Source: Acholoe squamosa | Lineage: Eukaryota > Annelida > Polychaeta > Phyllodocida > Polynoidae | NCBI GenBank assembly: GCA_949317995.1 | Contig: OX439051.1 | Coordinates: 45,697,250-45,761,249 of the forward strand | Direction: 5' to 3' | DNA: 64,000 nt | In this document: in pieces, positions 13,072 through 53,029 of the stretch | Numbering within the stretch: position 1 is the first letter of the stretch | Layout: each line of letters starts with the position of its first letter | Notes under the pieces: model-generated | Databases searched by the model: none | Seen by the model: only the letters and a program-made list of their open reading frames with translations | What the model was told of the DNA's origin: nothing | Program-made: the position numbers and the translations under genes

Positions 13072-13433
13072 TGTAAGGGGACCTGGGGGGTTCGGGTCTT
13101 ACGATTCGGAAAGAAAGAGTAAGACGGTGTTTCAAGTGTATGCCAATGGATAGAGTTCATTGAGATGTACACTCACGGCTATCCGGTAGTTGTTTAAGAG
13201 GATAGCTAGCAGTTATTAAAGATGGTCTACATACTTGGAGGCCAGAAGGGCCTCTGACGTAGCGGCTGAGCCCTGGGCTTTATATAAGGACCCAGGTGTT
13301 CGTCGTCAGATGTCCCCACAGACCCGGATCGGTGCTGCCACCTATCCGGAACCTGAGGAACGTCCAACCACTCGACTCACCCGCCACGTCAGACAGTACC
13401 CAACACTATGGTTATACAATAAGTACCTCTACA
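13072..13433 (-). repeat. Element A 3' LTR, with polypurine tract at 13434-13443
   Basis: 362 bp. Compared with the 5' LTR it lacks 13 bp near its end (around 13081). It carries the TATA-like TTATATAAAG read on the minus strand. The adjacent minus-strand sequence GGGGGAGTGG is the polypurine tract that primes plus-strand DNA synthesis. The same tract type precedes the 3' LTRs of B and C. Confidence 0.9.
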
Positions 13434-13443
13434 CCACTCCCCC

Positions 13444-14951
13444 AGACATTTAGGAAGGAGTTATAGTTATATAATTATTACAGGGATAACATTTCTATAT
13501 GTCTAAACCCTTAGTAATAGAGGTACAACCATAGATATAACGTTAACACCATGTTAAGTATGTTTCGAATGTCAATTTTACAAATTTGATAGTGTATATA
13601 GTTACAGAATAACAAACCGGATGTTGTAATATGATACGAATTGGTTGAATGAGTAACAGTTATGTGTAGCGGAACTGTCAATTAACCTTTTATACCATGT
13701 AGTAACAATCTATGTTTAGGGTATAAGTATTAGGATAAGTACCATAATTCGTATACACGTGATAATAACAGTTATATGTAACGGAACTGTCAAATATCGA
13801 ATAAATCACATGATAACATCCATATGTGTTTGTAATTAATAATATTATAAATGATCAGATAGTCTTGAGAAAGACTTTTAAAGTAACCACACTATCTAAT
13901 GACATTTTATATATTATGACCAAATGAATCCGTTAAGGATTTCATGAGTTATTAGGTATAGAACCGTTATCAATTATACACTTGAAAAAGAAAAAAGTAC
14001 GGTGGAGTAATGTATATGACAATATATGTGATACCACCATGTACTAGTAATCTTTATAGCACCAGATGAATATATTTATAATACAATATGCCTCGCAGGA
14101 CAATAATATGAATAATCTGGTGAGGTCTATCGGATCTTTTTTTTTTTTAAATAGATATGAACATCAGAGATCCGTATGAATAGAAATGCATATACCCGTA
14201 TCAAAATATGCAGTAATTTATCACCACAGTGTGACTATAGACATACAAATGATATTAGAAAAATAGTTATATGACATAATATACATAATAAAATGATAAA
14301 TGCTGCTGGAGTCCCGCGCTGCAGTCTATCGGATGCTGGAAGGTAGGTATGGTGGTCAGCTAACCACGGGATGGACGTGCTAGAGTCTTTTTATATAATA
14401 TGTGAACACGGTAGATGAATTTGGGGCAGCTACCCACAATCCTCTAGAAGTGCTATTGTTCATAAGTATATCCGAATGGTGTAGAATAATAGTAGAGTAA
14501 TAGTCCGGTTTTGTCAACAAGTAGAAACGTAATCCATTTAAGTGTAGTTGACATAAGTAAAAAGTCCAATGTAGGTTGGTCCGGAAGTAGTAGTAGTATG
14601 TAGTTTTAATCCATTCGAGAGTAGAGGTAGCACAGAATCATATAGTCCATCCTTATATAGTGGTCAGCAACAGGTAACAACAGGAATCAGGAATCAGCAT
14701 CCGGGTACGTATAGCAGCATCAAGTCTACTATCGGATTTGTTATAAGTTATGAATCCGAATAGACCTTTCAGGATATAATAGTGGTATATGTCCTGAATA
14801 TACACAAATAGCTGGTTATAAATGGAACCCGGAACACAAATAGCAGGTGTTCATCATTCTAATAAGAGACATTCGCAGTAGTATAGTTCCGCAAAGACTA
14901 AATCTGGTTATTAAAAATAATAAGTATGTAGAGAAATAACCCGTAGCATGC
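13444..14951 (-). other. Element A long 3' untranslated region
   Basis: AT-rich, with no supported frame. A direct repeat of about 30 bp (AACAGTTAT(G/A)TGTA(G/A)CGGAACTGTCAA) occurs near 13657 and 13767. A run of T lies near 14140. B and C also have noncoding DNA between ORF3 and the 3' LTR, but theirs is shorter (about 0.6-0.75 kb). Confidence 0.6.
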
Positions 14952-17405
14952 TTAGGTGGACTTCTTAGCATGCTTCTTCTTAAGAAGATCTAGAGCCGAT
15001 TCGGGAGTGCCGTCCCACTCGTCGATATCGGCTCCGAATACCCTCATAAACTTAGTGTTTAAGTTGGTATTCCGGGTAATCTCCTCTTTAACACGCTTCT
15101 CCAGAACGTGTACGTCCATAGCTGCCTGTTCTTTGGCAGCTAAGGCTTCATTCTCCTGGGCCTTTACATCGTCCCGAATGAGAGTCTCGAGGCGCTGTTT
15201 TTCGGCATCCGCTACCTCCTTCATACATAACAGGGTATCGTTAAGGAGACCCTGATGGAATTCAGTCGCTTTCTCACGGACATATTTCTCCCAGTGGGTG
15301 TAGATGGCCTTCTGGACATCCGCTTCCCCCTGGCGAGACTTCTCGAACCAAATTTCTGCATTACCAGCTTTGATGGTAATGGCATCTTTTGGTTTCGCAG
15401 GTGGTGCAACAACCTTGGGGGGTGTCGACACTTCCGGATGTAGGGCTTCCGGACACTCCTGCTGTTGGAAGACAGTAGGTGGGGGGTGCAGAGTTTTGTT
15501 TCAGTCCCATTTGCATGTACAGTTGTACCTGCTCCTGGGTGAAATTGACGGGTAGAGCGGCTGCGGCAGATGCGGATCCGGCGGCAGCAGGTGCTGAGGT
15601 CTTCTTGGGGACAAGTCGACCACCCTTTCCAATGACCAAGGTCTGGCTCTCGGGTCCAGGTCCCTGGTTCATGGACGGAAAGTTACGGGTGTTAACTTTC
15701 CCCGGCTTAGATACAGCACCTGCGTATCCTGCAGATTCGTGCCTCTTGAAGACGGGAGTACCCTGAACCTGCTCATGTGGGTGGCGTGCCGGAGGAGACC
15801 TGGAGCGGTCATCTACCCTGGCTTTAGCAGCTGTGGTGGTCTGACCAATACCGTTACCACCACGGTTCTGGTCTCTTCTGCTCCTCTCACGAGCCCTTTT
15901 CCCCTCCTTACCGGATTCCTTGCATTTCTGCCAGAGGGACTCGTGCATGTCAAGTTTCCCTTTTCCAGGAGTCAGGACAATCTTAGTGCAGAGTTTCGAA
16001 TCCTTGGTCTTCGGAACCTCGCAGAGGACTTGGTCCCCTGGTCGGATCTTCGACCAAGCATCTTCGCTCAGGCTATCAAACTCCTTCATGAGTTCCTGAT
16101 GGAGCCCGAGAGACGCATCCAATCTTCGTCATCTGACTCGTTGTTTTTATTTACAGAGTCCGGGCAGGTGTACAGGGTAGAGCCGTCCTTGTTTACTCCG
16201 TAGGCGCAGTCGGAGAAACACGTCGGAATCCGGGTTTTAAATCCGGATTTGGCGTTAGCCCATCGTTCTGCCCCGGTTTGAGTTGATGGAGTGGCCTTCT
16301 CATCATACTCAACCGAGGACTCATGCACGGATTCCTCGTCCGAGGAAACAACCTCCATGGCAGTACTACCAGTGGCTGAGGTGCTAGCTTTCGGTTCGGC
16401 TCTAGCAGAATCCGGAAGATTCTTGAGCTTCCGCGCAGCGGACCTCCTGTTCTTGCTCACCTTCCAGTCCTTCGGGTCCTTGGTTCCGGACTCACTGGAG
16501 GTTGATGCTTCTACCGTGGTTGACTCGGTAGTACTGCCGGTGGCTGTAACAGAACCGGCTGCGCCTCTTGTGGCAAGCTTCAGGTCGGGGATAGGAGGTG
16601 CGGGTACTTCCGCTTCCCTCTTAGCCTTTTCCAAAGCCTCCTGTTCAGCAGTCATACGACGGACGAGAACCGTCCGAAGGGCTGCACCTCTGTTCATGCC
16701 GGTTAGTGACTTGTTCTGCATGTCTACTAACTCCTCCTCGGTTATGTAATAACCGTCGTCCCACTGTTCGAAATTGCCAGCGGCTTCGCGGAACTCCCTC
16801 ATGGTCCGGTACCGGGGTCGGGTAGCGTAAGCTCCTAGCAGGAAGGCTCTGTTGGCCTTGTACACCACCTGTCAAAAGGCAATGTCCACCATGAGTCCCC
16901 GTTGGAACCACGGCCAGTCTCGGAGCCATTCCGGTGGCGTCCTATCCAGCTGATCGGGGGCCATAACGCCTTCGATCGCCATTCTCACCTTCGGGTCCAT
17001 CTTGTGGGGAGTACCATCTGGATTCACTACCTGTGCCTGTAGCTCCGGATGGACGTACAGGTACCGGCCGTCATACTCTGCGGGGAACGGGTCAGCCACT
17101 GTTGGCTTCCACTGGTCCTTCGGGCTGTCGACTTGTGTAGTCTCGGACCCAGTTGCTGCTGCTTCAGGATTCGCAGCGTCTCCAGCTCCTTCAGTCGGAA
17201 GTGGTGACAACATCTTCTCTGGCTCATTCAACGAGAATGAAGCCAGCTTCTGCTCGAACGAGCGATTGGCGGGTTCCTCCACGTCCATCATCTCGCTCTC
17301 TTCCTGTGTCACAGGTGACAAAGCTTCCGGAAAAGCTTCTGCGGACGGAGTCAGCTTATCCGGGTCGCCGGATAGCATGGCTGCAGCTACAGATTCCTCA
17401 GCCAT
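14952..17405 (-). pseudogene. Element A ORF3 (third gene downstream of pol), broken
   Basis: It starts at ATG 17405 in a good context and opens MAEESVAAA, as in element D. The N-terminal segment contains PPEWLRDWPWFQRGL. An in-frame TGA at about 16870-16872 falls where D has an Arg codon, and about 33 residues present in D are missing just after it. Next come an acidic, Ser-rich region and the shared Cys module CFSDCAY...YTCP...VNK...ESDDEDWM (near 16110-16210). The frame then shifts to 16122-15361, which holds a basic region and NFPSMNQGPGPESQTL, and shifts back at 15431-14952, which holds a coiled coil ending FMRVFGADIDEW. There is no signal peptide or membrane segment, so this is not an env. 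The product is probably nuclear or RNA-binding (inference). Large plus-strand frames opposite are antisense shadows. Confidence 0.8.
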
Positions 17406-17913
17406 GACTGGGGAATCAACACGGGAGTCAAATACTCCTTTTTCCGGCTTTTACGGCGCCGGGGCCAACACAAACGGAGTCTGCCTGCTGAGAGACAGAC
17501 TCTGAGGGCCCACAAAGGGTTGCTAGACGGTAGAATTTAAGGAGAGAGGGGTGACCCAACTGTCCCAAACGCTACCGAAAAACAATATGGCGACAGGCCA
17601 GCTTTCGTGACGTCATTTCCCCGCGGGTCCGCGGGGTCACGAGAGGTCAGCCGAGACTGGACGCGGTGACGTCATGCGGAAACGCACGTGCTACAAGCGG
17701 AACATCAACAATCTGATTGTTTTTAGGTAATTATCGCTCACGCCGATGACTCGTCTGAGGATTTAAGTGGAGATTATGGAAAGCTTAAGCAAATCCACCG
17801 GATTATCCGTCCACTACCCATTGGTACATCATGCGGCGGCGACAAATAAGCCTTTCGGGTCAGTTGTCATCCGTTCCTCTAAATGTAAACATTACACTCG
17901 TTGTGTATACAGG
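17406..17913 (-). promoter_or_regulatory. Element A internal promoter candidate ahead of ORF3
   Basis: This GC-rich gap between the pol stop and the ORF3 ATG contains two full CRE palindromes TGACGTCA (17608-17615, 17667-17674), CACGTG (17685-17690) and a YY1-type AATATGGCGAC (17584-17594). The same set in the same order is kept in element D at 60335-60440. No such cluster is needed by an LTR-driven genomic RNA, so I infer a separate start for an ORF3 mRNA. Confidence 0.6.
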
Positions 17914-18332
17914 TTAGGTCACTGCAGTCCTCTGGGCAATTCGAATTCGAGGGCTGCGGGGAACGTATATCCCCTTCTTGGATAGTTCTTTATCGGACCT
18001 GACAGTCTGAAGAGCCTTTTCTGGGTGTTTCTTGGCCTTCGAAACACCTTTCCTCTTCTTTTTGTCTTCACCTGCCGAGACTTTTTTAACTCCCCCACGC
18101 TTAATCGGTGTTGGCGTGGGTGGTACTGATTCGGAACACTTCTTAGGCCTACCCCGGCCCCGCTTCACTGTAGTGTTCTTTACCTGGTCTATTATACGAT
18201 TCTGGTTCCGGATCTTTTCTAATCCTTCACCATACATTTCTGTGGAGGTCTCCCTCCCACACCACTTCCTCAGTCTAGCCACATTTGACTTATAGAGTCG
18301 ACCAAGGTCTGATTTGATAATTACGGTACAAT
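17914..18332 (-). pseudogene. Element A pol C-terminal tail (integrase tail), severed by B
   Basis: This is the 3' end of element A pol; the break point is the CAAT duplication at 18329-18332. It encodes the end of the integrase C-terminal domain (SNVARLRKW-like), an AT-hook VKRGRGRPKK, a Lys-rich linker, and a final SPRIRIAQRTAVT before the stop at 17914. The matching upstream part lies at 30733-32394 across element B. Confidence 0.85.
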
Positions 18333-18695
18333 TGTAATGGTTCGTATCGACTTATATGTTGGGTGGCTCGTTGGCTCGCTTATCACTAGAGATACCAACA
18401 CAACACGAGTAGTTCGGGTTGGGCAAAGCCCAGGATACCCCTACCTCTCGGGTAGGACTTTATTTAATGTTTCAATAGATTATACTGAGCGTCTTGACTG
18501 GACCACGTCCAGTCCCCTTCTGCCGCTCGTCCGGCTTCTTAGTAGAAGCTGGACGCGAGGCATGGTGCTGCCCCCTCTTGTACCAACGGGGTATCGCAAA
18601 GCGACACCTAGCTGGCATAGAAGGAACAAGCACCACACGAACACGTCTCTCGGATGAACGGCACTAATATATATACAACGATGCCGGCCCCTACA
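18333..18695 (-). repeat. Element B 3' LTR, polypurine tract at 18696-18706
   Basis: 363 bp. On the minus strand it starts TGTAGGGGCCGGCATCG and ends CCATTACA. The minus strand contains AATAAA (complement of TTTATT near 18449-18455), a candidate poly(A) signal. The flanking tract reads AGTGGGGGTGG on the minus strand. Confidence 0.93.
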
Positions 18696-18706
18696 CCACC
18701 CCCACT

Positions 18707-19464
18707 AGACTATACCTAGGGTTGGGCATATTTAATAAATACCTATTGTTGACTTTATACAATAATAAATTATACACGAATAGGTAAGTCTATACATAAG
18801 TGTTCGTATAGAATATAGAACATTAAGGGGCATTATAAATAATATGTACATGATGAGGCATCGTCGCATATAACCCGAAGTAACTAATAATAACAATTAG
18901 GAAGTGGTGCCTTATGCACCATCGACCTAGGGTAGTAGATGGTAACAATGTTACAGTGTTATTATAGTATTAGAGACGCGATAAAAGGTTGTAGATGTGT
19001 AGTGAAATGGTATTAACAATATTTTACAGTAGTAACTAACCGACCCGAGGTGGGGTAAATAACCCGAGAAAAATTTTGTTTGGTTTAATTACAAGAATAT
19101 AAATATTATATAAAAATAGCTTTACACAAAATATTAATACTGATAATAATAGACGTCCTACCAGGGTAGCAGGATCGCCCTTACAAAACACCGGACTTCC
19201 GGCGAATCTGGAACGACTGGTTTCTGCAGCTCCACCCGGCGACATGTATGTGGTGGCAAGCCACGTTGCTGTTATGTTGTGCCCTGTTGAAGGTGGGAAG
19301 ATGGAGCCCCGGTTAGGTGTAGTAATCCTTTTTGTGTTTCGGGTTAGCGTCCATCTTCACTGCAGGTTCCGTCCCAGATCAGCGAGTCCAGTGTAAGGAT
19401 AAGTACCTCTGGCATGATAAATGCCTTTACCCTCGGGTACAAAAAGACACCATCAGATGGACAC
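18707..19464 (-). other. Element B 3' untranslated region
   Basis: About 760 bp between the ORF3 stop and the polypurine tract, AT-rich in its element-distal part. No supported frame. Confidence 0.6.
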
Positions 19465-22400
19465 TTAAAGATCTTCCGGATCCGTGTCCATCTTCTCAGC
19501 CGACTCCGCTGAGGCAGACGGAGCCGAGCTGCTGCAACTGCTCACAGAGAGCAGCGTGGAACAAGCTGCTGCCGGCTGGCGCCGGCAGGATTGGATTGCC
19601 TCCTCGACATTCTTCCTTTCCTGCACCTGAATTTTCTCTTCCTCCCTCTTCTGGACCTCGTAGACCAGGTTGAAGGTGGCTTCAGTCATCACACGCCAGT
19701 AGTCGACTGACTTCTGGCGATGCAATGCCTGCCATTCCGCCATCAGGTCATTCTGGATCTGAGCCGTTTGGACATCGCGGTGGTCAACAAACGTGTTCGG
19801 ATCCTGAAGACCTGACAGAGTACCTGAGATTAGTTCCATAACGGGCACCCGAGGGGCCGTTGGTGGAACTATAACTGGTGGGGGCGCGGCGGCCTCCACA
19901 GTGGCAGGCGGAGCGCCTGCTGGAGGGACAGACGGGCCCTCAACCGTGATACCTCCTCGGCCTCGGCCACCGCCCGGGGGAGCTCGGGTGGACTCCATTC
20001 CACCACGGCCTCTACCCCGGGGTTCAGACCGGCCCAAGGGGGTTAGGACCTGAGATTCGGGTCCCGCTGGTCCCATGGAAGGGAACTTCGCCGCGTACTC
20101 ACTGTACGTGGGGCGCTTGCCGGAAGATCCCTCACCAGCCCACCAAGATGTATACCCGGATTGGGGAGCGAAGAGCTCGCCCCCATCATCCTGGCTGCCA
20201 GAGGCTTCGCCCGGGGGTTGCTCCGCGGGTGCAGGTGTTGTGGATGTGGCCGGGGTGGCCGCCTGGCTAACCGCCCTACGGGTTTGGTTGCTGGGCATAT
20301 CCAGAGCCGAGACCTGTTGTCCCGACTCGCGACGATCAGCTGGGTTGGCTGGTCTAGGCTGGTCCTTATTACCCGAAGGGCTTACGGACCGGTCTGCGCG
20401 GGTCCTTTTGGAAGCACTGGTAGCTGTGGCTGTGCCTCCGTTAGGACCCTTCGAGCGGGCTTTGATCTTCTCCCGCTTGTCATCTCCCCTCCACTTCTTC
20501 ACCTTCAGGTGCACCTCGCTGGGCATCCCGAACTTGGTGGAGGAGAAGTTGATCTGGAAGAAGGCCAACAAGTTGCCACTCTTCCACGAGCAGAATCCGG
20601 TCTCGAATGCCTGCTCCTTGATGTCTTTGACACTCAACGAGGCCCAGTTAGCTAGGAGCACTTGAGGGCCCGTTTCCTCGTCTTTTCCAGGCCGGTACCA
20701 TGGGCTTTCTGCAGATGCAGAGCCATGTCCCGGCGCGGTTAGTGGAGAACGAGCCGTCACATAGTTTGCTCGGACGGTCTCCGAGCACACACATCATCAG
20801 GGGCTTGTGGTGCATATGGTGCTCCACTATGTGTCGAGCGAAGCGGGGCTTCGTCTCAAACACCTTCTCTCCTGTGAGAGCCAGCTGACACGATTCGAAT
20901 GGGCACCTCCGGCGGTTGCCGGATGGCCCCCATTGGGTCATCGCCCATTGGACTTTCGTCCGGGCCTCATAGCTGTAAATCGACCCCAATTTGGATTTGA
21001 GCTGGTCAATCCAAATGAGGTAGAATTTACCCACTGGCGTATCCGAGGGGCCGGACTTCATCCACTCCTCGTCGTCGCTATCACCGTGCTTATTGACAGC
21101 GCCCGGACACATGTAGTGGACTGTGTCGTAAGCACAGTCCGTGAAGCAGCGGGGAGTCCGTTCTTTGAACCCCTCGGCTGCATTCTTCCACATCCATTTC
21201 TGATTGTCATCCTTAGGGACATCCGTGGTCATCTCTTCCCACGTTGTCACGGACTCCAAATCAGATCTGGCTGACTCGGGCAGCTCTGGGTCGCTCTCGC
21301 TTCCCTCACTGTCCGTGTAAATGCCTTCTCCTCTACGGCTGGCTCGGCTGGTGGTAGTAGTACCAGACGAAGCCTTGGTAGAGGACTTGGCGCTTGATCC
21401 GCTGGTGCTGGCAGTGGAAGCTGCAGTAACCGAGGTGGCTACTGTGGTTGCTGGTGTCTTGGAGGCGGGCGTCTTCGGGTCGCCCTAACCGCTCGACTTG
21501 GTGGGGGGCGTGGGCTCCGCCGGAGACGCTTTCGCTCCATTTTTCTTCTTCCGGCGCACGACCTTGGGTGGCTGCGCCGGCACCTCGGGACTAGAATCCG
21601 ACTGTCGTGGATCCTTGTCCTTTGAACGAGGGCTTCTCCTACTACTGACCGGGGAGTCGGAGTCGGAGGAAGCCTTCGCCTTACTTTGGGCCTGCTGTTT
21701 TCGGTGGGCCCGACGAGCTGCGGTGAGCTGCTTCTGCTGTTTGGCGAGCTCGGCTCGCTTGGCCTCAACAGCAGCCTGCTGACGCGAGATGTCCTCCTCC
21801 GAGATCTCGCCAGGCGCCTCCGGTATGTCGGCACCCGGTTCCTTCTCGGATGTGGACCTCTCGATGGCGATCCTTAGGTCTTCAACCTCCAGGTCACTCT
21901 CGGTGAGAGGACCCTTTGGTGCAGGCTTGTGGGTCAATCGCTTGACCCGGTCGGTTTCCACCGAGGAAAGAGTGACTGTAGAGTCTGTATCCATGTCGGA
22001 CTCAGACTCTCTTAACTCCGCGGCCTTCCGGGTGATGCCTTCGGAGATCAGTACTGCTCGGGCCAAGCTCTCGTTGACCGCCATCTTCTCCGACAACTTT
22101 TTATAGTTCCGGAGCCAAGAGACTGGCATACTGTCAGCCAACTCGTCGCTGCACGAGTCCATAACCAGAGTCTGGAAGTCGTCTGGTATGGCCTCGGGCA
22201 CGCCTGGTTTCACCGCCAGCGGTCCGTATCCGAACATGGAGGCGTGCAAGGGGGATATAAGTCCCCCAGGAGGTGTACACGACACCGGCCTCGTCATCGA
22301 CGTGAGCCATACGCTCGATGCGAGTCTTGTATCCCGGAGGATACATAGGGATGTCCAGGACATCAATCCTATCACCCAAAGCTGCCGCCTTAGACGCGGG

Positions 22401-22595
22401 CTCCGGGCGCGGTGGTGGTGGAGGTGGCATCCTCTCCCGGTCGGTGGCCTCGGCCATCGCAGAGAGCGTCAGGGCTGCCTCCTCAGTTGAAGAGTCCATA
22501 GACTCCTCGACCCGAGACGGGACCTTCGGGTCCTCGCCTTGCTCCAACAGAACGTTGGCTGTCTGACGCGCGGCGTCAATCGTCCCCTGTGCCAT
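19465..22595 (-). pseudogene. Element B ORF3, broken by frameshifts and a stop
   Basis: It starts at ATG 22595 in a strong context (GCCATGG) and encodes MAQGTIDAA. In order: an N-terminal region with a Pro run; a frame change near 22260; a segment with MPVSWLRNYKK that resembles PPEWLRDW of A and D; and a long Glu/Arg/Ser coiled-coil region. A TAG near 21485-21487 breaks the frame. Then come the Cys module CFTDCAY...YMCPGAVNKHGDSDDEEWM (about 21050-21160) and a C2H2-like finger RCPFESC...RFARHIVEHH (about 20810-20900). A second frame change (20650-20790) leads to FPSMGPAGPESQVL, an Arg/Gly-rich RGRGRG patch, and an acidic C-terminus ending at 19465. Total about 1,040 residues. It looks nuclear or nucleic-acid binding, not an envelope. 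Confidence 0.78.
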
Positions 22596-23019
22596 GGCAC
22601 TGAGGGCGACTTCCAATTTCGAATTGGCAAATGTGTTGGACTTCTCCCGAAGGATTCGTCCAACAAAGGTTTCTAGTTAGGGCAAGCTAACACAACAGCT
22701 AGAGGCTGTCTACCGCCAACACTAACCAGAGCGAAAACGGGTGGCGTCTTACCACCACGAGTCCGCTCTAGTTATGAACAATATGACGTCAGACCTCTCG
22801 TCTCGCGAGATCCCGCAAAGGCTATCCGGTGACCTAGTTCTGCGCTTTCCCGCCGCACCCGCGGCGCCACCTAGGGAGCTTCAAAGCGAATGTACCGGTT
22901 AATCCGTCCGCCGCTCACGGGATACAGCTACCCGGGGGGGCGCGTTCGGCATCTCCAGCCGTGGAACGTATGTTAACCGCCTACGGCGGACAACACGCAG
23001 CAGCTCGTTGTGTACTGAG
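22596..23019 (-). promoter_or_regulatory. Element B internal promoter candidate ahead of ORF3
   Basis: The pol-ORF3 gap is CpG-rich and contains TGACGTCA (22784-22791) and the palindrome TCTCGCGAGA (22801-22810), a known metazoan CpG-island promoter motif. The CRE sits in CAATATGACGTCAG, which aligns with the YY1-type site CAATATGGCGACAG at the equivalent place in A. No clear TATA box is seen. Confidence 0.55.
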
Positions 23020-26000
23020 TTAGGTTACAGCAGACCTCAACCGGGGACTGCGTCTAACGCCTTCGGTTAGCCTCTTATTCTTCCCGGCTTTACGTACGGC
23101 CTTTTCTGGGTTCCGCTTAGCCACAGCGGGACCTTTCCCATACGTAATGCCTTCACTCAGCGAGACATTTTTCCTTTTCTTACGATTAGGTCGTTTCCTG
23201 GCCTTCGTCTTCTTTTTCACTATTACCTCGTCTTCCAGCATTTTTCTCGGCCGGCCTCTAGGGCGCTTCATCGGTACTACCACGCTAGGTCCGCTAGGGA
23301 CAGACTCAGGTGGTTGGTAACCGAACTCCCTCTCCGCCTCTTTGCGTCCCTTCCAGGGCCGAAGTTTTCCGACATTTGTCTTCCATTTCCTACCAGTTAG
23401 GCAGTCCTCCATCATCACCGTAGACTCGGAGATGATGCGAATAATTTTAAATGGACCTTCCCAGGGCGTTACGAGCTTCAGCCATTCTAGCGGCTCGTAG
23501 TACCTTAGTACTTTGTCCACAACATTAAAACGAATTCGTTTGGCATTGGTGTCATAACCCACCTTTTGCCACTTCGCACTCTTCAGCAGCTCTTTCCGAA
23601 CGGCCTCGTATGCCTGTTTGAACCTATCCCTTAGCGACTCCACAAACAACACGGTGCAGGGCGCCTCCGGGTCTATCCCAACCACTCCATACACTAAGTC
23701 GGCGGGCATTATGATGTCCTCGCCGAACACTAGCATGTTTGGAGTGCAATTAGTAGATGAATGGACAGTGTTGTTGTAGGCATGTACTACAAACTCACAC
23801 TGTTCATCCCAGTCGTCCTGGTGGGTATTGACCAGGGGCTTTAGCACTTGTATCAGGGTTCTGTTGAACCGCTCTACTTGCCCATCCGACTGTGGTCGGT
23901 ATGGGTTCGTTCGGGTCTTGCAAATGGCTAGGTAATGGCACATTTCCTGCCATAGCTCTGACTCAAACTCTCTTCCATGGTCGCTGTGCATCATAAGGGG
24001 AACACCCAAATGCAGCACCCAGCCTTTCACAAACGCTTCCGCGCATGTGGCGGCTTTGTGATTAGGAAGAGGGAACACCCGGGTATACTTGGTGTAATAG
24101 TCGGTTACGACCATCATGCAAGTATTGTCCCGGGGCGTCGTCTTGATCCCACTGATGATGTCTATCGCCACGCGAGCGAACCTGACACCAAACAATTCCT
24201 GGGATAAGGGTTGCTTTCCCCGGCCGGGTCCCGGCTTGTTTTTACAACAATCCGGGCAAGTGGCGATCCACCGGAGCAGGTCGCCTCTCATTCCAGGCTA
24301 GTAGTAACGCCTTTGTAGGCGCTCTATTGACCTCTTCTTACCGAAATGGCCGCTCGTTTGGTGACCATGGCAATAATACATGATGTCCCTCCTCATCGGG
24401 GCAGGGATCACTATTTGCAACAGCCTACCGTTGGTGGGAGTTGTCTTCCACCTACATAGTATGCTGTCTCGGATCTCTAGCTCAGTCCATTGGGCTAGCA
24501 ATCGCCTCGCTTCCCTATCTTCTAGGGATACTAGCGGCCTTGCCGGTTTAATACCTGACTGTAGGTATTCCATTATGCGCGCGGTGGTGGGATCCGACTG
24601 TTGGAACTTCTTGATGGTCTCCGGGGACCAATCAAGATAGCTACATACAGCCTCCTCCCAGGGGATACGGGAGGTGGTATAATTAAATACCAACCCGGCT
24701 ACCACAGCATTGTGGGCCCCGCAGTCTTCACAAGTGGCATTTTGGCACCTTCGGACAGGTCGCCTCGACAAGGCATCCGCATTGATATGTTTAGCACCGG
24801 GTCGGTGCTCTATTTGTTTATGCTCCAATCCAAACTCGGATAGATGAGCTAACCATCGTCCAATCATCCCCTCGGCGTCCTTAAAGTTAAGGAGCCACCT
24901 AAGAGACGAATGGTCGGTTCTTAAAGTGAAGTCACTTCCCCAGAGGAAATGCTTAAACTTCTTCGTATACACCACTACCGCGAGGAGTTCCCACTTGGTG
25001 GTACAATAATTACGCTGGGTCTTGCTTAGCGTGTTGCTAGCGAATGCTATTGGGACTTCGACTCCCTCCTGGACCTGAGAGAGAGCTGCCCCTATTGCAT
25101 CATTACTCGCATCTGTGTCTAAGATGAAATGTCCCTTGGGAGTGGGATATTTCAACACGGGTGTGTTTCTAAACAAATCTTTTATTTTATTAAAAGATTC
25201 TTCTTGCTCGCTGGTCCATGGGAATGGGTCCCGTGCCCTACCCGGGGTCCAGTGAGCTAAGCACTGCATGGGAAAGCTGACACGAGAATAATTCGGTATG
25301 AAATCACGGTAATAGGAACAAAATCCTAGAAATGATCTCACCTCCTTAGCACTCGTGGGTCTTTCCCAATTCTCTACAGCTTCTAATTTCTCCGGATCTG
25401 CGCTCACCCCGTTGGGGGTGATGATCCTTCCCAAGTATGTAATTGTTTTCTTAAACAGGTTACATTTCTTGGGTTTGAGTTTTAGACCGTTTGATAGTAT
25501 CCGGTCGAGTACCAATTGCCAATTTGCATGGCATTCCCTAAACGACTTGCCGAACACGACAACATCGTCCAAGTAGACCAAACATTTCTTCCACAAGAGA
25601 TCACTCAACAAGGATTCCATCATGGCCTCGAATGTAGCGGGGGCATTACACAATCCAAAGGGTAAGACATTATACTCGAATAACCCCATATGACTGGAGA
25701 ACGCTGTTTTCTCCATGTCATCGGGGTGCATCGGTATCTGCCAATACCCAGATTGTAAGTCCAAGGTACAGAACCATTGGTTCCCACCCAAGCTATCTAA
25801 CGTCTCATCTATCCTTGGTAAAGGATATGAGTTCTTCTTTGTCATACCGTTCAGTTTTCGGTAGTCGACACAAAAGCGGATTGTACCGTCTTTCTTAGTG
25901 GTCATACAAACAGGGCTGGACCAGGGACTCGAGCTCGGCACGATGACCCCTAGGTCCAACTGTTTTTGTATTTCCTGTTCGCAAATTAACTTCTTCTTGA

Positions 26001-27264
26001 GAGGAAGTCTACGATACGGGATTTTAAAAGGTTTCTCGTTGCCCACATCTATGGTGTGCAACACCTTGTCGGATCTACCCACCGGTCCTCCTTCCCTACC
26101 AAAAGCACTCTCGTACTTTTGTAGGAGTTTCGCTAGGCAATCCTTATCCTCCGTATTCTGTAAATCTGATTGGTCAATCAGCTTTTGGAATTCTTCATCC
26201 AATGGATGCTTACTAACGGGGTTTAGTGGTTTATTGAACCTAGCTTCGGCGACGTGTTCAACCGAACTCATCCTACCCACACTGTCGCCTCGCTTCAAGT
26301 AGACCACTGAACCACTTCGGTTAGTCATGGGTAATACAGTCCAAGCTGCATTAGCCACTAATGTATCCACTGAGTCCAACCCGATACTCGACAAGTACAC
26401 CGTGTCGGGTTCATAGACTCCAGTTTCATTCCTTTGGGCCATTGATCCGCCACAAAGGACATCGCAAGTGGTACCCGGTGGGATCTTCACCGTGTGTATC
26501 ACTGATGCAACCGAAGACACTTGTCTCAATACGCATTGGACATGCAAGCCATACGGGTTCCGTATACTCATCATACCATCCCTCGGGTCCAAGATGGCCC
26601 CATATAAGCTTGCAAAATCCAGTCCGAGGATTCCGTCATCACTAACCTCTGCTATAGTTGGCGAAAGAACAAATTCTTTGCCTCCTATATGGATAGGCAT
26701 AAACGTCCTACCAAAAGTACGCATACTGCTTCCGTCGGCTGTGCAAGCATTTACCCCCGTTTTGAGGTTCTCATGGCTGCCGGCCACCGAGTCGAAGAAT
26801 CTTTTGGACACACAGGAGTGGCTGGCTCCAGTATCCACCAAGAATTCACCTACCCGGCCTTCCACAGATATGGGTACATACCACCGTCTCCCCCCTAAAG
26901 GAGAGGGGTTACTGGTAAACTGGTGAAAGTCTCCCAAATCACCAAGATTCAATCCGAGTCCTCTCAAAAATTCCAGACATGGATGACTTGGGGGAAAGCG
27001 TGTCCCACACACTCGGATCAACTCTTTGATCCATCCTTCCTCTCCCCCAGTGCGGCCACTCGCCTCCATATGTTCACTCCCATACACATAAGCACTAGGG
27101 TCCCTGGCCCCGGCCAAGGTGCAGGGGTGCGCACCCACAGCCACCCGGCCTCCAGGTGAATTTGATTCGAAATCTTCCACCGGGTCACCCCCGGTAGCAT
27201 TTTGGCATTCGTTCCTCCCCGGGGTTATACCCAATGCCGTGGATACAACCCCCACTAGTTTTCC
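23020..27264 (-). pseudogene. Element B pol: protease, RT, RNase H, integrase; one nonsense codon
   Basis: Aspartic protease DTGASHSC (about residue 170), RT with FCVDYRKLNG and the catalytic YLDD, RNase H with DTDASND and LRTDHSSLRWLL, and an integrase with HHCC zinc knot, D,D35E core (IDIISG, HSDHGREFE, QVERFNRTL) and WEGPF C-terminal module. The tail carries the AT-hook PRGRPRK and ends VRRSPRLRSAVT. It is about 1,410 residues in one frame except for a TAG at 24298-24300, which replaces the Trp of the YYWPGM motif. Translation probably enters by a -1 shift at GGAAAAC (27258-27264), overlapping the gag stop at 27255-27257. Confidence 0.93.
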
Positions 27265-30200
27265 ACATCAGTGGAATCCGTAGCGTTCTCCCTTCCTTCG
27301 CCGTTGTCTTCGGCTTCATAGAAGGCAGCCATTACCGGCTTAGCAGCGGTACATTCGGAGGAGTAGTGTCCCATGTGCTGGCACCTGAAACACTTAACCG
27401 TTCGGCGATCCACTCTGGGTCTTTGCCGACTGGTTTGGAGGGCATCTGTAATTTTCTTACACATATCCTCCATAAGTTTGGTCATGTCCGGAGACTGACC
27501 CTTCGCTTTATCAGTGCTTACAAGAGGCTTGGCTGCCTTCTCACCAACTTTCGGGTCACTCTTGACCTCGGATGATGGTCTAGAATCCCTTGGCTTATTA
27601 AACGCCTTCCTCGGAATATACTTCCTACCTGAAGCATTTTTCCTTACCTGCATCGAACAGAAGGTGCCATCCTCCTGTTCGATTTCAATCAGTTAAAAGT
27701 CGTCCAAGGTACTATTTACCTCAGACTGCTGGACTACTGATGCTAGGGGAGCCGAGCCGCTGGCATTCCGTATGTCCCCGGCTAACATCGTTCGCTTCTT
27801 CACGGCCATATCTATACCATTAAATATGCCGTGTAATGTTATGCCTTCTTTCCAGGCATCTCTCGCAGCAATCTGCTCGTCTCGGTCTCTCAAACCCTTA
27901 ACGAATTGTATAATCAAATCGTCCATATACCAGTCCTGGTTTTCAGTACCGGGTCTGGCCTTGCTTAGCAGGGCATGGAGTTCCATACCGTATGCTCTGA
28001 AAGCTTCATTAGGCTTTTGCGTGCGATTTTTAAAGCGGACCATCGGATCCTCCTTGACCATGTTACATAACAGTCCACTAGCAGATTCCACTAACTGCTC
28101 GAAACTCCCTACGAGACCGTACCAGGTCCGCCATTGCTCTACAGCCATGGGACCCGGCCCGCCTTTCAAGCATCTCACTAGATGCGGCTTGGCCTAGTAT
28201 GGGGTCCACCCATTACAATTCATCACATCGATGAAATCTTCAAACCACTCTTTCCATGGTCGAGTACCGTCATATTCCTTAGGAATCACGGCTACCCTTC
28301 GGGCGGAATTATGAGCATACATCAATCTGGTGCATTGCTGTTTGCTCCACTCAATCGCCTTGGTTTCGTTCAAGGTTCGATTGCCCCCTATTCCACTGAA
28401 GCTTGTGTTGCCCGGTGGAGGTGGTGGTGGTGGCTGGGTATACGTCCACTGTGAACCACTGTGATTCGTATAGCCCCCACCACCCTGTTTAGGGCCGGTA
28501 CCCGAGGTACTATTGCTACCTGTAGTACCCGTAGCACCGCCCCCCCCCCTTGTGCACCTTGGTGGCCGCCCTCGGATGGTTGGTTCCCCGTTGGTTGACT
28601 ACCATCGTTTGATGGAGTTTGTTGGCTGCTGTCATTACCAGCTCCCAACCCAACACTTTCAGTCTGATCCACATGTATGTGGAAACCACTAGTCTCCGCG
28701 CTACTGTTGGAAGCATCCCGGGGTGCATAGTCCGGGTTTAAGTTGTGGACTATGGGGACTTCACTTATCCAGACTCTACTAGTTCGGCCGTGCTTATCCT
28801 GGGTTCTGATATAGACTCCCCCTTGATCTACATTCCACGTCGCATTGTCATTGACAAAAGGATTGTATTGCGGATGCTTAGGTGTAGAACAGGAGACTGG
28901 GTCACCCTGTTTAACAAACGTCGAGTTCGGGTTTGCGTCCTTACTCGCAGGAGGAGCATTCGCCTGCTCTTGCTCATGTAAATAACTCTCCATAGCAGAC
29001 TTATTTATTGTGAGGGTAGCTACATCCGTAGTCAGGTTTCGCTGTTCCTCCCTTAGCTGTGCGTTTTCTGATAAGATCTCGGATCAAATCTTCTCATTCT
29101 CCGCAACAGCTCGGTTTCGCTCCTCTTGAGCGGCCAATGCCTCTCGCTTAAAAGTATCCTTCAGTAGACGGTACTTTTCACCTTTCTCCTTCTGAGACCG
29201 CTGATACTCATTGGTCTCTCTCCTGATCTCGGATTGTTCCGAGACCAACTTGGCCTCTGTCTCTGCCTTTCGGAGTTGAAGTTTCTTTAACTTCTCCTCC
29301 ATGGCATGCAACTCGGATTGTAGTTTGTTTACATCCCGGGCCTTAGCAACCTCCTCGGCTCTAGCCTTTTCGATTGCTCTGAGTTTATTGGCTTCTTCGA
29401 GTTCCAACTCAGCCAATCTTTTCTCTTTTTCACGTTCGTCTTTCTCCTTTCGCTCCAAACGATGGGCTACGGAAGTTAGACGATATTTTAGGTCGGATTC
29501 TTTTAGAATCGCCTCCTGTTCAACGGATCGTAATTTGCCGATCCGAGATTTAGTTTCCTCTTCTATTTTCAATTGGGCTGCCATGAATTGTTCATGTTGC
29601 CTCTTAGCCTGTAATTCTACCTGCTCTTTGGCTTTCAAATAGGCCGAGGTAGTTTTATACCCGGGGCCCATCCGACGTCCGTATACCGACTTGCGGCTGC
29701 CTCCAGGGTTGAACATGGAGTCAGACAAGCCTTCGTCCAAAGATAGGCCTAGGAAATGCTTTTCCGAGTTTCTCGGTTCGGCATCCCGAGGCTTAGTCTT
29801 CGGGTTTGCTTTCGGGACCAATGGGTCCTTTATAGCTTTACCATCGTCGCTATCATGGTCCGACGATGTCATTAATGGGGCTACTCCGTTTATCCCCTCT
29901 GGTACCGCTCCCGGGGGGGTCGCGGTACGCTGCATAGGGCTTTGTGCCATTGGGGTACCCAAGCTGCTAGCCGAGCCTGCTGGTGCAATTGGACCCAGCT
30001 GGCGTCTGCTAGTTATGACTTGGGACCAATCGCTCAAGTCCAACGTTGGGGGTCTTAATACCCCCTTAAACAATCCTGTATCTGGTGCCGCCGTTTGAGG
30101 TGTACCCGGATACAATCTTACGATGCCACTTCCATCAGTGGTGGCACCGTCCATCAGACCGGGTGTCGAGAAAACAGTCCGGACACCCTCTGAATTGTAC

Positions 30201-30349
30201 ATTTGTTGTTGACCGGGCTTCCAGTCTAACAACAGATGCTGGGATGTAAAGTCATCCTCTTCGAATCCCTCTAGCCCAGGGCTGGGGGGATCCGCTTCGG
30301 GTTTCCCGAGGCTTTCGGCCAATGTGGCCGCGCTCCACCCCCGAACCAA
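27255..30349 (-). pseudogene. Element B gag, broken
   Basis: The frame opens next to the primer site without an ATG (first codon here TTG; the first Met is about 50 codons in). N-terminal part: Ser/Pro-rich, then LSDSMFNPGGS, then about 200 residues of charged coiled coil ending at a TGA near 29084. It resumes in the same frame (28993-28388) with YNPFVNDNA...GGVY, a motif shared with A, D and E. A frame change occurs around a C-run and GGT repeats (28420-28560). The capsid-like region (28300-27693) has a TAG near 28194 and a TAA near 27695. The CCHC knuckle CFRCQHMGHYSSEC follows (27653-27255). Gag ends DVEN at the GGAAAAC-TAG junction. Confidence 0.85.
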
Positions 30350-30352
30350 CTG

Positions 30353-30364
30353 GTCACGGCACCA
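30353..30364 (-). other. Element B primer binding site, tRNA-His
   Basis: On the minus strand TGGTGCCGTGAC lies one base inside the 5' LTR. It is complementary to the 3' end of animal tRNA-His including CCA. Confidence 0.85.
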
Positions 30365-30365
30365 G

Positions 30366-30728
30366 TGTAATGGTTCGTATCGACTTATATGTTGGGTGGC
30401 TCGTTGGCTCGCTTATCACTAGAGATACCAACACAACACGAGTAGTTCGGGTTGGGCAAAGCCCCGGATACCCCTACCTCTCGGGTAGGACTTTATTTAA
30501 TGTTTCAATAGATTATACTGAGCGTCTTGACTGGACCACGTCCAGTCCCCTTCTGCCGCTCGTCCGGCTTCTTAGTAGAAGCTGGACGCGAGGCATGGTG
30601 CTGCCCCCTCTTGTACCAACGGGGTATCGCAAAGCGACACCTAGCTGGCATAGAAGGAACAAGCACCACACGAACACGTCTCTCGGATGAACGGCACTAA
30701 TATATATACAACGATGCCGGCCCCTACA
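30366..30728 (-). repeat. Element B 5' LTR
   Basis: 363 bp. I see one difference from the 3' LTR, in the CAAAGCCC(C/A)GGAT word. It ends against the CAAT duplication. Confidence 0.95.
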
Positions 30729-30732
30729 CAAT

Positions 30733-32394
30733 CACTAATAACTTGTGTTACAGTAAAAGGACCGTCCCAATTAGATGCTAATTTTATGTGTCTAAGTGGT
30801 TCATGTAGTCTTAGAACTCTGTCTCCGGATTGGAATTTCCGATGTTTTAGATCAGTATCATATCCAACCTTCTGCCATTTGGCACTTTTCTTAAGATCAA
30901 TTCGGACAGACTCGTATGCTTTTCTGAACCTGTCTCTTAAGCATTCGACAAAAACTACATGACAAGGTAGTTCTGGGTCCATTCCTACAACTCCAAATAC
31001 TAAGTCTGCAGGCATTATTAGGTCCTCTCCGAAAACTAGTAGATTCGGAGTACAGTTAGTACTTGAATGTACCGTACTGTTATAAGCATGTGTCACAAAA
31101 TGACATTGCTCGTCCCAATCGTCCATGTGTTCATTAACAAGTGACTTCAGGACCTGGATAAGGGTTCTGTTGAACCTTTCCACCAATCTGTCGCTTTGAG
31201 GCCTATACGGATTGGTTCTAGTCTTGCAAATAGCTAAGTATTCGCACATCCCTTGCCAGAGATTTGATTCGAATTCTCTGCCTTGGTCACTGTGTAACAT
31301 TAATGGTACACCGAAACTTAGTACCCAACCTTTCACAAAGGCTTCGGCACAAGTAACTGCTTTGTGGTCCGGTAGTGGAAATACTTTAGTGTATTTCGTA
31401 TAATAATCACACACTACCATCATACAGGTATTCTCATTAGCGGTTGTATTCAATCCACTAATGATATCCACCCCGATTCTTGCGAACCTAACTCCGAAAA
31501 GTTCTTGGGATAGTGGTAGCTTGCCCATCCCGGGTCCGGGTTTGTTCTTACAACAATCCGGACAAGTAGTTACCCATCTTTGCAAGTCTCTTGACATGCC
31601 AGGCCAATAGTATTTCTTGGAAAGTCGTGCTAATGAGCGCTTCCTTCCGAAATAACCACTGGTCCGGTGCCCATGACAGAAATACATAATGTCATGTCTC
31701 ATTGCATGTGGTATCACCACTTGCATGATTTTCTCACCATTATTACATGGCTTCCAACGGTACAACACGCCTTTCCGGACTTCAAGCTCGGTCCATTGAG
31801 CAAGAAACCTTCTCATTTCTCGATTTTCCAGAGAGACTTCTGGTCTAACTGGACGTATACCCTTCGGTACTAATTGCAGTAGCTGCGCAGTTATCGAGTC
31901 AGCTTTGTGGAAACGTTGTATGTGATCCATAGACCAATCCAGTATACTGGCAACTAGGGATTCGAATGGTCTTCGAATCCCTGCTAACACTGCCTTATGA
32001 GCTCCACAATCAGTACAATCCGGATTATCACATTTCCGAATTGGTATTCGAGATAAAGCATCAGCATTTAAATGCTTAACTCCGGGTCTATGCTGAATTT
32101 GGTGATGTTCAAGCCCATATTCGGATAAATGGGCTAGCCATCGGCCTAACATTCCTTCAGCATCTCGGAAGTTCAGTAGCCATCTTAAAGAGGAGTGATC
32201 CGTACGTAAAGTAAAGTTCGTTCCCCATAAAAAATGTTTGAACTTCTTGGTATATACGACTACTGCTAACAACTCTCTTTTGGTTGTGCAGTAATTGCGC
32301 TGAGTTTTACTAAGTGTATTGCTGGCAAAGGCAATAGGTACTTCTCTCCCATTTTGGACTTGCGAGAGAGCTGCACCAATGCTATCATTACTAG
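30733..32394 (-). pseudogene. Element A pol middle part: RNase H to integrase
   Basis: This resumes element A pol after element C (break in DTDAS of RNase H) and runs to element B. It contains the rest of RNase H (SKTQRNYCTTKRELLAVVVY, LRTDHSSLRWLL), the integrase zinc knot and D,D35E core, and part of the C-terminal module (NWDGPFTVTQVISD), where B begins. Two changes look damaging against D and B: the His of GHFG in the HHCC knot is Tyr (SGYFG), and RPQSDG is RPQSDR just before the catalytic Glu. Confidence 0.9.
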
Positions 32395-32862
32395 TGTGGT
32401 GGTCCCGCGTCGTCTTCGAGGTACCTTCGTGGTCCTCGTGGGCGGCGTCGAGAGCACCTCTATTACCCGACGCCTGGGGGCGCTGGAGTCCAGCGCCACG
32501 TCACCACTTGGTCACGTGGCCCTCGACTCCGGTGTATATAAGGCCGTTGTACGGCCTTCCTCAGGGTCAGTCCAGCCCCGACTGACCATCGTGAGCGATG
32601 GTTGGCGGCTGCCCGGCTACCATATTCTAGTACTCCTCTGTGCTGCTGCACAGAGGAGGCGTATGTGGAATATCAACTGTAGACACTAGAAGGCCTGGTG
32701 TCGAACCTGATTTAAAGTTCAAACTCTGCCACCTGTAACTGTGATCGAGAACGGCTGATGCCTATGTGTTATTAGACAATAAAGTTTTAACTGGAACCTG
32801 AATAGTTGTTCTTCGTTGTTTATCGAAAGATTCGATTGAACATCGAGGGGTAGAACACTACA
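32395..32862 (+). repeat. Element C 5' LTR
   Basis: 468 bp, TGTGGTGG...ACACTACA. U3 has TCACGTGG (E-box CACGTG at 32513-32518). The TATA box is TATATAAG at 32535-32542. AATAAA is at 32778-32783. Confidence 0.95.
32540..32658 (+). other. Run of hairpins in the R region of element C
   Basis: Stems follow one another just after the TATA box: AAGGCCGT/ACGGCCTT (32540-32558), GGTCAGTC/GACTGACC (32565-32587), ACCATCG/CGATGGT (32585-32602) and CTCCTCTGTGC/GCACAGAGGAG (32633-32658). The second and third share a few bases and would be alternatives. The 3' LTR has the same set. Confidence 0.6.
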
Positions 32863-32863
32863 C

Positions 32864-32875
32864 TGGTGCCGTGAC
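32864..32875 (+). other. Element C primer binding site, tRNA-His
   Basis: TGGTGCCGTGAC, one base after the 5' LTR, identical to the sites in A, B and D. Confidence 0.85.
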
Positions 32876-33072
32876 CAGTTGTTAACTTTAGTCCGCATAG
32901 GTACTGCGACATGCAGGGTCACTTGGACGAAGGTGATGACCCCAATCACCAACATCAAGTGACTACAGGCCCGTTAGTGGATAGAAATGATCCACTAATC
33001 GGTGGTGGTTTGAACCACACCCTGATATTAGGTCCATCGTCTGACCCGTTGGGCCTGTATCAAAGGAGCTGA

Positions 33073-44300: not shown

Positions 44301-44417
44301 GAGTCGCCGACGTTTTCGCGCCAGCTAGCCGCCAGCGCTTCACATGAGGAGGAGCGCACTGACGGAGAGCAGGCTGAAATCGACGCCGCTACAGGGTCCA
44401 TCTCGGAGGATCAGTAG
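41319..44417 (+). pseudogene. Element C ORF3, interrupted by a 126-bp insertion
   Basis: This is one frame of about 1,030 residues, split only by the insertion at 42088-42213; both halves are in the same frame. N-terminal part: Ser-rich, Lys run, coiled coil, Pro/Ser/Lys-rich region, then GSDDEEWYSDD (near 42030-42065), matching the SDDEEW module of A and B. C-terminal part: C2H2-like finger CAFENC...RYARHLVEEH (42330-42415), a second Cys/His patch, a basic linker, a globular-looking region around 43140-43660 ending EFFRVFGVQLSEW (as in A), then a Ser/Pro/Asp-rich acidic tail. No signal peptide or membrane span. Role unknown; a nuclear nucleic-acid-binding accessory protein is my inference. 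Confidence 0.82.
42088..42213. mobile_element. 126-bp MITE-like insertion in element C ORF3
   Basis: The ends CCCAGTCAACAAAAAACGT and ACGTTTTTTTGTTGAGTGGG form imperfect terminal inverted repeats. The inside is full of AACGTT/AAACG words in both directions. It is AT-rich against its GC-rich host gene. I could not identify a target duplication, so the family is open. Confidence 0.7.
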
Positions 44418-45001: not shown

Positions 45002-45012
45002 GTGGGGGGTGG

Positions 45013-49545: not shown

Positions 49546-49556
49546 CAGAAATCCTG

Positions 49557-49568
49557 GTCACGGCACCA
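49557..49568 (-). other. Element A primer binding site, tRNA-His
   Basis: TGGTGCCGTGAC on the minus strand, next to the 5' LTR. A near-perfect palindrome (core GACGTTATAACGTC, 49520-49533) follows in the leader, as in D. Confidence 0.85.
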
Positions 49569-49569
49569 G

Positions 49570-49944: not shown

Positions 49945-49948
49945 CTAG

Positions 49949-53004: not shown

Positions 53005-53005
53005 C

Positions 53006-53017: not shown

Positions 53018-53029
53018 CAGTTAATTCTG

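What the first reader, a model, noticed from the sequence alone, without database searches (positions are those of the whole stretch)
14952..22595. A third large gene (ORF3) shared by three families of Gypsy-type elements, not an envelope
A, B, C and D all have a coding region of roughly 800-1,040 residues between pol and the 3' LTR. It lacks a signal peptide and membrane span. It is diverged between families yet keeps the same ordered features: an N-terminal xPxxWLR(D/N) block, a Cys module with SDDE(E/D)W, a C2H2-like finger (clear in B and C), FPSM-GPESQ-L (A, B), and FRVFG-EW (A, C). Conservation across diverged elements implies selection on an accessory function. I know of no named Gypsy accessory gene with this layout.
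Basis: partly seen in the sequence, partly recalled or inferred. Interest (0 to 1): 0.88.

Follow-up and report, generated by a model that had tools for sequence, protein, structure and literature searches.

The report
Zinc-finger accessory gene in Gypsy elements
Three families of Gypsy-type jumping genes in this large genome carry, besides the usual two genes, a large third gene that selection has kept, that does not look like an envelope, and that resembles a nuclear regulatory protein with two zinc fingers and perhaps its own promoter.

Summary
The third gene is real. The window holds nested Gypsy elements A, B, C and D; D is a second copy of the B family, so there are three families. [quoted passage not shown] All four window copies are broken, but 43 of 45 C-family places scored elsewhere in this genome have no stop (frames of about 1,010 residues). 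Eleven full or partial relatives came from unnamed metagenome contigs; a profile of eight finds A, C and part of B far above shuffles. The conserved core is SDDE-x-W followed by two C2H2-like fingers; many members end in F-x-R-V-x-G...W. Selection is clear: dN/dS 0.17-0.23 between B and D; shared variants within C 0.09 (second sample 0.17). I found no Pfam relative above cut-off, no PDB-sequence relative and no membrane-like stretch. The pol-ORF3 spacer is partly very conserved and promoter-like; in C it shares two motifs with the LTR. Best reading: a nuclear regulator of the element's own expression; RNA export, as by CERV of Cer1, is the main rival.

The parts
18323..30729 (-). Element A; LTRs 18323-18696 and 30356-30729 (98.9% alike), inserted in B with ATTG on both sides
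   Evidence: self-BLAST, LTR edges read, PBS at 30350-30364
13079..49945 (-). Element B, LTRs 13079-13434 and 49590-49945 (97.5%), interrupted by A and C
32394..45464 (+). Element C, LTRs 32394-32846 and 45012-45464 (99.1%), inserted in B with CTAG on both sides
52626..61876 (+). Element D, same family as B; broken at 61876 by a 99.9% copy of its gag region (55166-57290)
19468..22676 (-). ORF3 of A in four open pieces: 22676-22137 (ATG at 22595), 22468-21488, 21484-20651, 20793-19468
   Evidence: profile match of 21484-20651; ATG
20759..21085 (-). A ORF3 core: SDDEEW, finger 1 (C-x4-C...H-x4-H) and the Cys pair of finger 2; its His end lies in another frame
14955..17450 (-). ORF3 of B in four open pieces: 17450-16875 (ATG at 17405), 16871-16089, 16128-15364, 15500-14955; finger stretch missing in this copy
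   Evidence: other B copies carry the fingers
41319..44414 (+). ORF3 of C; 129-bp insertion 42085-42213 holds the stops; otherwise 96% identical to another C copy (L019)
42324..42560 (+). C ORF3 finger pair
60593..61876 (+). ORF3 of D, open pieces 60593-60907 (ATG at 60620) and 60802 to the break at 61876
22596..23019 (-). pol-ORF3 spacer of A with GACGGATTAACCGG (22895-22908) and TGACGTCA (22784-22791)
17406..17913 (-). pol-ORF3 spacer of B with GACGGATAATCCGG (17798-17811) and TGACGTCA (17608-17615, 17667-17674)
60112..60619 (+). pol-ORF3 spacer of D; 98-100% identical to B over its first 170 nt, 71-96% after that; GACGGATAATCCGG (60214-60227), TGACGTCA (60351-60358, 60409-60416)
40371..41318 (+). 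pol-ORF3 spacer of C; CCAAT boxes 40856-40866 and 40897-40907, GGTCACGTAG 40879-40888, TATA-like ATAAAAGGCCG 40923-40933 (the last two motifs also in the C LTRs)

Best explanation
ORF3 is an accessory gene of this Gypsy lineage. It encodes a nuclear, nucleic-acid-binding regulatory protein. Two C2H2-like fingers behind an SDDE-x-W motif bind nucleic acid of the element itself, a C-terminal helical stretch ending in F-x-R-V-x-G-x-x-L-x-x-W lets the protein self-associate, and basic clusters take it to the nucleus. It is probably made from its own promoter in the pol-ORF3 spacer and acts early on the element's own expression, most likely as a transcriptional regulator of the LTR and the internal promoter. 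Shown: conservation, finger ligands, selection, stop-free C copies, no membrane-like stretch, conserved promoter-like spacer. Inferred: nuclear location, binding target, own transcript, helical self-association, timing, and the direction of its effect.
For: Eleven outside relatives (P0001-P0011). The eight finger ligands are invariant in P0001-P0008. Finger 1 is found in 14 of 14 sequences and finger 2 in 13 of 14 (A misses it in frame), with patterns written from the alignment; P0013, a near copy of P0012, was left out. SDDE-x-W and the fingers are invariant or nearly so across types. F...G...W is nearly invariant in 11 sequences, not in the set of 15 with more partial proteins. A two-part basic cluster is found in 11 of 14 (loose pattern, no control). 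43 of 45 C-family places scored have no stop in the matched parts (best 47 scored of 9366 first-look candidates); 27 of 28 read locally are open for at least 987 residues. dN/dS B-D is 0.21, 0.17 and 0.23 for three ORF3 pieces, pol 0.06-0.10, integrase end 0.15. Within C, shared variants are 50 synonymous and 15 non-synonymous, ratio 0.09 (28 copies); a second set of 12 copies gives 0.17. First 170 nt of the spacer 98-100% alike in B and D although pol dS is about 0.27. TGACGTCA: 5 of 6 sites in the window lie in the A, B and D spacers (0.72 expected in the whole window). C spacer and C LTRs are the only places in the window with GGTCACGTRG and with ATAWAAGGCCG (0.18 and 0.06 expected), in the same order at different spacing. 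An acidic tail (15-25 of the last 60 residues) is seen in 5 of 8 C-type sequences.
Against: No expression, localisation or binding data. Three of 8 C-type sequences and the short type P0008-P0011 lack a markedly acidic tail. B and D count as one family, so the CRE sites are seen in two lineages only; no TATA box was shown in the A, B or D spacers. The later part of the B-D spacer falls to 71-96% identity. A CAG lies 2-8 nt before the ATG in all three families, so a spliced mRNA, as for CERV, is possible; CAG is common and this was not tested against chance. The C copies for the selection tests were chosen by protein score, which favours low non-synonymous counts. In B-D, changes made after insertion are included.
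Confidence: 0.45

Rival explanations
1. ORF3 is a nuclear exporter of unspliced genomic RNA, working like CERV of Cer1 or Rev: it binds the RNA in the nucleus through its fingers, multimerises, and couples it to export.
For: CERV sits at the same place in a Gypsy-type element, is nuclear, has a Cys finger and predicted multimerising domains, and is needed for RNA export (PMC10309623, abstract, sections 9 and 15, passages). ORF3 has the same kind of parts. Part of the pol-ORF3 spacer is strongly conserved. A CAG stands close before the ATG in all three families.
Against: The spacer is not unusually structured as RNA: D z 0.06, A -0.51, B -3.1, first two thirds of C -0.5 and -1.4, against a mean of -3.4 for 42 stretches elsewhere in the elements; only C 41000-41310 (-8.3) stands out. 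Outside relatives and B-family ORF3 match no gag frame of the window, whereas CERV shares its first exons with gag. No spliced mRNA shown. The CERV sequence itself was not compared.
Confidence: 0.25
2. ORF3 counters host silencing, for example small-RNA or chromatin silencing of the element in the germ line.
For: Faster evolution than pol (dN/dS 0.17-0.23 against 0.06-0.10; A-B core 31-32% against 69% for A-D pol) fits an interface with host factors. The C family is abundant with many stop-free copies.
Against: Fast evolution also fits a regulator that follows changing LTRs.
Confidence: 0.12
3. ORF3 is a particle or integration accessory (extra nucleocapsid or targeting protein).
For: Finger pair and C-terminal conserved stretch would suit nucleic-acid packing or tethering.
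Against: Every family already has a CCHC knuckle in gag. A promoter-like spacer and basic clusters point to separate nuclear expression.
Confidence: 0.1
4. ORF3 is a decayed or unusual envelope.
For: [quoted passage not shown]
Against: No 19-residue stretch above 1.32 on the Kyte-Doolittle scale and no hydrophobic start; no Pfam env match; conserved finger ligands.
Confidence: 0.03
5. The open frames are chance or shadow frames in GC-rich, repeat-rich DNA.
For: Antisense frames of several hundred codons exist; window copies are broken.
Against: dN/dS, outside relatives, shuffles and stop-free genome copies.
Confidence: 0.01

Closest known systems
CERV of Cer1 (C. elegans Gypsy-type element); PMC10309623 (abstract, sections 9 and 15, passages)
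   Same: Large non-env ORF between pol and 3' LTR; fast-evolving; Cys finger; basic cluster; predicted multimerising part
   Different: CERV is spliced and shares its N-terminus with gag, 517 aa, C4-type Cys loop and a G-protein-like domain, reported without obvious homology outside nematodes. ORF3 is about 536-1,024 aa, one open frame, two C2H2-like fingers, no gag similarity, possible own promoter
Grande accessory gene (maize), nuclear protein from its own promoter (title in the reference list of PMC8220671; described in PMC11963269 background)
   Different: PMC11963269 lists Grande among elements with antisense ORFs; plant lineage; sequence not compared here
Retand / TRP28 antisense ORFs of plant Gypsy elements; PMC11963269 (abstract, background)
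   Same: Long pol-3'LTR region with a conserved, possibly DNA-binding protein
   Different: Antisense; TRP28 domain, plants. ORF3 is sense and matches no Pfam family above cut-off
Bdelloid rotifer ORF3s (env, GDSL, DEDDy, coiled-coil, TM); PMC5408684 (passages)
   Same: Third ORFs of animal LTR elements, several not env
   Different: Those are enzymes, fusogens or TM/coiled-coil proteins; 'zinc' does not occur in the main text
env-F of insect errantiviruses; PMC12992720 (passages)
   Same: Third ORF after pol in Metaviridae
   Different: env-F has a furin site, fusion peptide and membrane span; ORF3 shows no membrane-like stretch
Foamy-virus Tas with internal promoter (recalled; related papers seen only as search listings)
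   Same: Idea of an early nuclear regulator made from an internal promoter that shares control with the LTR
   Different: No sequence relation tested; Tas lies after env in Retroviridae (recalled)

Membership tests
Retroviral or errantiviral envelope | Membrane span | tested here: not met
   Kyte-Doolittle 19-residue maximum 1.32 in 18 sequences and 1.03 in 10 more, some of them the same pieces counted from the ATG
Retroviral or errantiviral envelope | Signal peptide | tested here: inconclusive
   Starts from the ATG of A, B, C and D are not hydrophobic (best 12-mer 0.87 at most); no dedicated predictor
Retroviral or errantiviral envelope | Match to an env family model | tested here: not met
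   Pfam only: no env match for 10 window pieces or the relatives
CERV of Cer1 | Sequence similarity to CERV | not tested
   CERV sequence was not at hand
CERV of Cer1 | N-terminal part shared with gag | tested here: not met
   11 outside relatives and two B-family proteins match only ORF3 frames of the window at E <= 0.01, no gag frame; spliced first exons cannot be seen this way
CERV of Cer1 | Needed for nuclear export of genomic RNA | not testable with these tools
   needs cells
Retand/Grande-type antisense accessory ORF | Antisense to gag-pol | tested here: not met
   ORF3 is on the gag-pol strand in A-D; selection was measured on the sense frame
Classical C2H2 zinc finger (Pfam) | Score above the Pfam cut-off | tested here: not met
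   No zf-C2H2 match for 10 window pieces, P0001, P0002-P0008 or 15 members of A5
Classical C2H2 zinc finger (Pfam) | Two Cys and two His ligands per finger | tested here: met
   Ligands conserved, spacings unusual: C-x4-C...H-x4-H and C-x(8-10)-C...H...H; zinc binding itself not tested
Gypsy (Metaviridae) accessory gene | Encoded between pol and 3' LTR in several families, kept by selection | tested here: met
   (pol end upstream of ORF3 in 27 of 28 C copies)

The most novel reading that the evidence does not exclude
A lineage of Gypsy elements is a 'complex' retroelement: it carries an early regulatory gene with its own LTR-like internal promoter, whose zinc-finger product acts on both promoters, a switch worked out independently of the regulatory genes of complex retroviruses and kept across strongly diverged families.
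Probability: 0.3. Interest if true: 0.8.

Novelty: new variant of a known kind. Interest (0 to 1): 0.62.

Why it matters
Accessory genes with a known job are rare in Gypsy elements, and third ORFs are often called env-like by position alone. Here is a large protein family with a defined finger core, clear selection and, in the same genome, an abundant family with many stop-free copies, so its role can be tested directly. If it is a regulator with its own promoter, retroviral-style control of gene expression evolved in Metaviridae too.

Tried and rejected
RNA-structure role for the pol-ORF3 spacer: B alone looked structured (z -3.47; -3.09), but D, nearly identical, gave z 0.06 and the element background was -3.4 over 42 stretches. 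Dropped. One exception left unexplained: C 41000-41310, z -8.3.

Many ORF3 families in the genome: the P0010 search gave 81 places with very different frame lengths, but all 12 fetched loci carry C-family fingers. I make no claim of many families.

Intact B-family ORF3: of eight B-family stretches scanned, one (L011) has a 904-residue frame from the N-terminal block to FMRVFG but lacks a stretch that the window's B has, and one (L015) has a 902-residue frame that leaves the last motif in another frame. So stop-free full ORF3 is shown for C only.

Fingers as a replacement for the gag knuckle: A, B, C and D have a CCHC knuckle.

First within-C selection run was wrong, because two copies slipped by a codon and gave pi near 10%; rerun. 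The F...W pattern was badly written and missed most members; I rely on alignments A2 and A4.

Collections without a relative: viral contigs with P0001, A1 and the A pol; genome contigs with P0001.
Full report
What is there. The window is a nest of Gypsy elements. B (minus strand) has LTRs at 13079-13434 and 49590-49945 and is interrupted by A (minus; LTRs 98.9% alike) and C (plus; LTRs 99.1% alike). D (plus) starts at 52626. B and D are the same family (pol 96% aa over 515 residues); A-D pol identity is 69% and C-D 59%, so three families are represented. All share the primer site TGGTGCCGTGACCAG; by recall it fits the 3' end of tRNA-His. The host genome is held without a name: 1.48 Gb in 63 contigs. 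That it is an animal is an inference.

ORF3 in the window. It is broken in each copy but its parts are clear. The C copy carries a 129-bp insertion that brings the stops. The B copy lacks the finger stretch that other B copies have. D is cut at 61876. Of eight B-family stretches scanned, one has a 904-residue frame from the N-terminal block to the last motif, though without a stretch that the window's B has, and one a 902-residue frame that misses the last motif. The long stop-free frames shown here are therefore those of the C family.

Relatives. The C piece found one protein (P0001, E 7e-80) and the core of P0001 seven more. The shorter type P0008 found three more. None has a Pfam domain above cut-off; P0008 has sub-threshold matches to coiled-coil families such as ATG16 (E 0.0009). 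The best PDB sequence match had E 0.17. In P0001-P0008 SDDE-x-W, IDWYV and the ligands C298, C303, H322, H327, C336, C345, H368 and H377 (P0001 numbering) are invariant. With the B type and the A and C pieces added, the finger-1 ligands and the first Cys of finger 2 stay invariant, and SDDE-x-W, the finger-2 His and the late F...G...W are nearly so. In a set of 15 both Cys of finger 2 are invariant, while the late motif drops out of the list because several members end before it. A profile of the eight outside proteins finds A (58.9 bits), B (29.2) and C (452 and 127) against best-of-300-shuffle scores of 5.4, 6.2, 4.7 and 1.1. Two other B pieces gave weak (10.7 against 7.9) or no (-2.8) support. 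The A-B core aligns at 31-32%, A-C and B-C at 27-28%, so A and B are closer to each other than to C.

Selection and activity. B-D dN/dS is 0.21 (0.06-0.55), 0.17 (0.08-0.34) and 0.23 (0.15-0.39) for three ORF3 pieces; pol pieces give 0.06-0.10 and the integrase end 0.15. In the genome, the search with P0001 scored the best 47 places of 9366 first-look candidates. Two belong to a decayed relative; 45 are C-family ORF3, and 43 of these show no stop in the matched parts. In 28 of them, variants shared by at least two copies are 50 synonymous and 15 non-synonymous (0.09 per site), and singletons 65.5 and 66.5 (0.32). Because these copies were picked by protein score, I repeated it on 12 copies found with another query: 0.17 for shared and 0.31 for private variants; those too were picked by protein score. 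The gene is therefore kept in the active lineage and evolves faster than pol.

Own promoter or splicing. Part of the pol-ORF3 spacer is conserved beyond expectation. B and D are 98-100% identical over the first 170 nt although synonymous sites of pol differ by about 0.27; later blocks range from 71% to 96%. In C, spacer diversity is 0.001-0.024 per 60-nt block against 0.0275 at synonymous sites of ORF3. A and B/D share GACGGATNANCCGG, exact only at these three places in the window. Five of the six TGACGTCA sites in 64 kb lie in these spacers; as B and D are one family, that is two lineages. Among nine distinct B-family copies read, eight keep at least one site (L002, L005 and L006 were not read). 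In C, two CCAAT boxes, GGTCACGTAG and ATAAAAGGCCG precede the ATG; the CCAAT boxes and the TATA-like motif, 392-458 nt before the ATG in L019, are kept in 26, 28 and 27 of 28 copies. GGTCACGTRG and ATAWAAGGCCG occur elsewhere in the window only in the two C LTRs. This suggests an LTR-like internal promoter. But a CAG lies 2-8 nt before the ATG in all three families, so splicing is not excluded. A special RNA structure of the spacer is not supported, except for C 41000-41310.

Mechanism. The ordered parts (finger pair, C-terminal conserved stretch, basic clusters, and an acidic tail in 5 of 8 C-type sequences) are those of a nuclear nucleic-acid-binding protein. Two published analogues frame the choice: CERV of Cer1, a non-env ORF at the same place that is needed for nuclear export of genomic RNA (PMC10309623; abstract, sections 9 and 15, passages), and the nuclear Grande protein with its own promoter (PMC11963269 abstract and background; title in the reference list of PMC8220671). 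Because the C spacer resembles its LTR promoter and most spacer RNA is not specially folded, I put a transcriptional regulator (0.45) before an RNA exporter (0.25).

Novelty. Nine paper searches showed, in their listings and the passages I opened, third ORFs of other kinds but none with this layout. That covers an open-access library only; Repbase and Dfam were not available. I rate it a new variant of a known kind: a new protein family in the known class of LTR-element accessory genes.

Noticed in passing
61876-64000 and 55166-57290: A 2125-bp 99.9% identical direct repeat: after D's ORF3 breaks, D's gag region starts again and runs to the window end. Rearranged second copy or assembly effect.
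   Followed up: partly
50987-52655: A fifth primer site (one mismatch, TGGTGCCATGACCAG) followed by a 538-residue frame, perhaps gag-like, just before D; probably a remnant of another element.
   Followed up: no
11026-11928 (+): A 300-residue uninterrupted frame with a sub-threshold match to diaminopimelate epimerase (E 3.8e-7); unusual if the host is an animal, possible horizontal transfer.
   Followed up: no
23020-24291, 57487-60111, 37281-40370: The pol C-termini of A, B/D and C all carry GRPRK/GRPKK/GRPAR stretches like AT hooks in a long basic tail.
   Followed up: no
41000-41310 (+): The leader before C ORF3 looks built of repeated hairpin-like units of about 50 nt; folding z -8.3 against a background of -3.4.
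   Followed up: no
42085-42213 (+): A 129-bp insertion in the window's C ORF3, absent from copy L019; length divisible by three but with stops. Source not traced.
   Followed up: partly
L017 and L018 (own genome C7, C12): A second, decayed C-type family that is closer to the metagenome protein P0001 (43%) than the C family is (38%).
   Followed up: no
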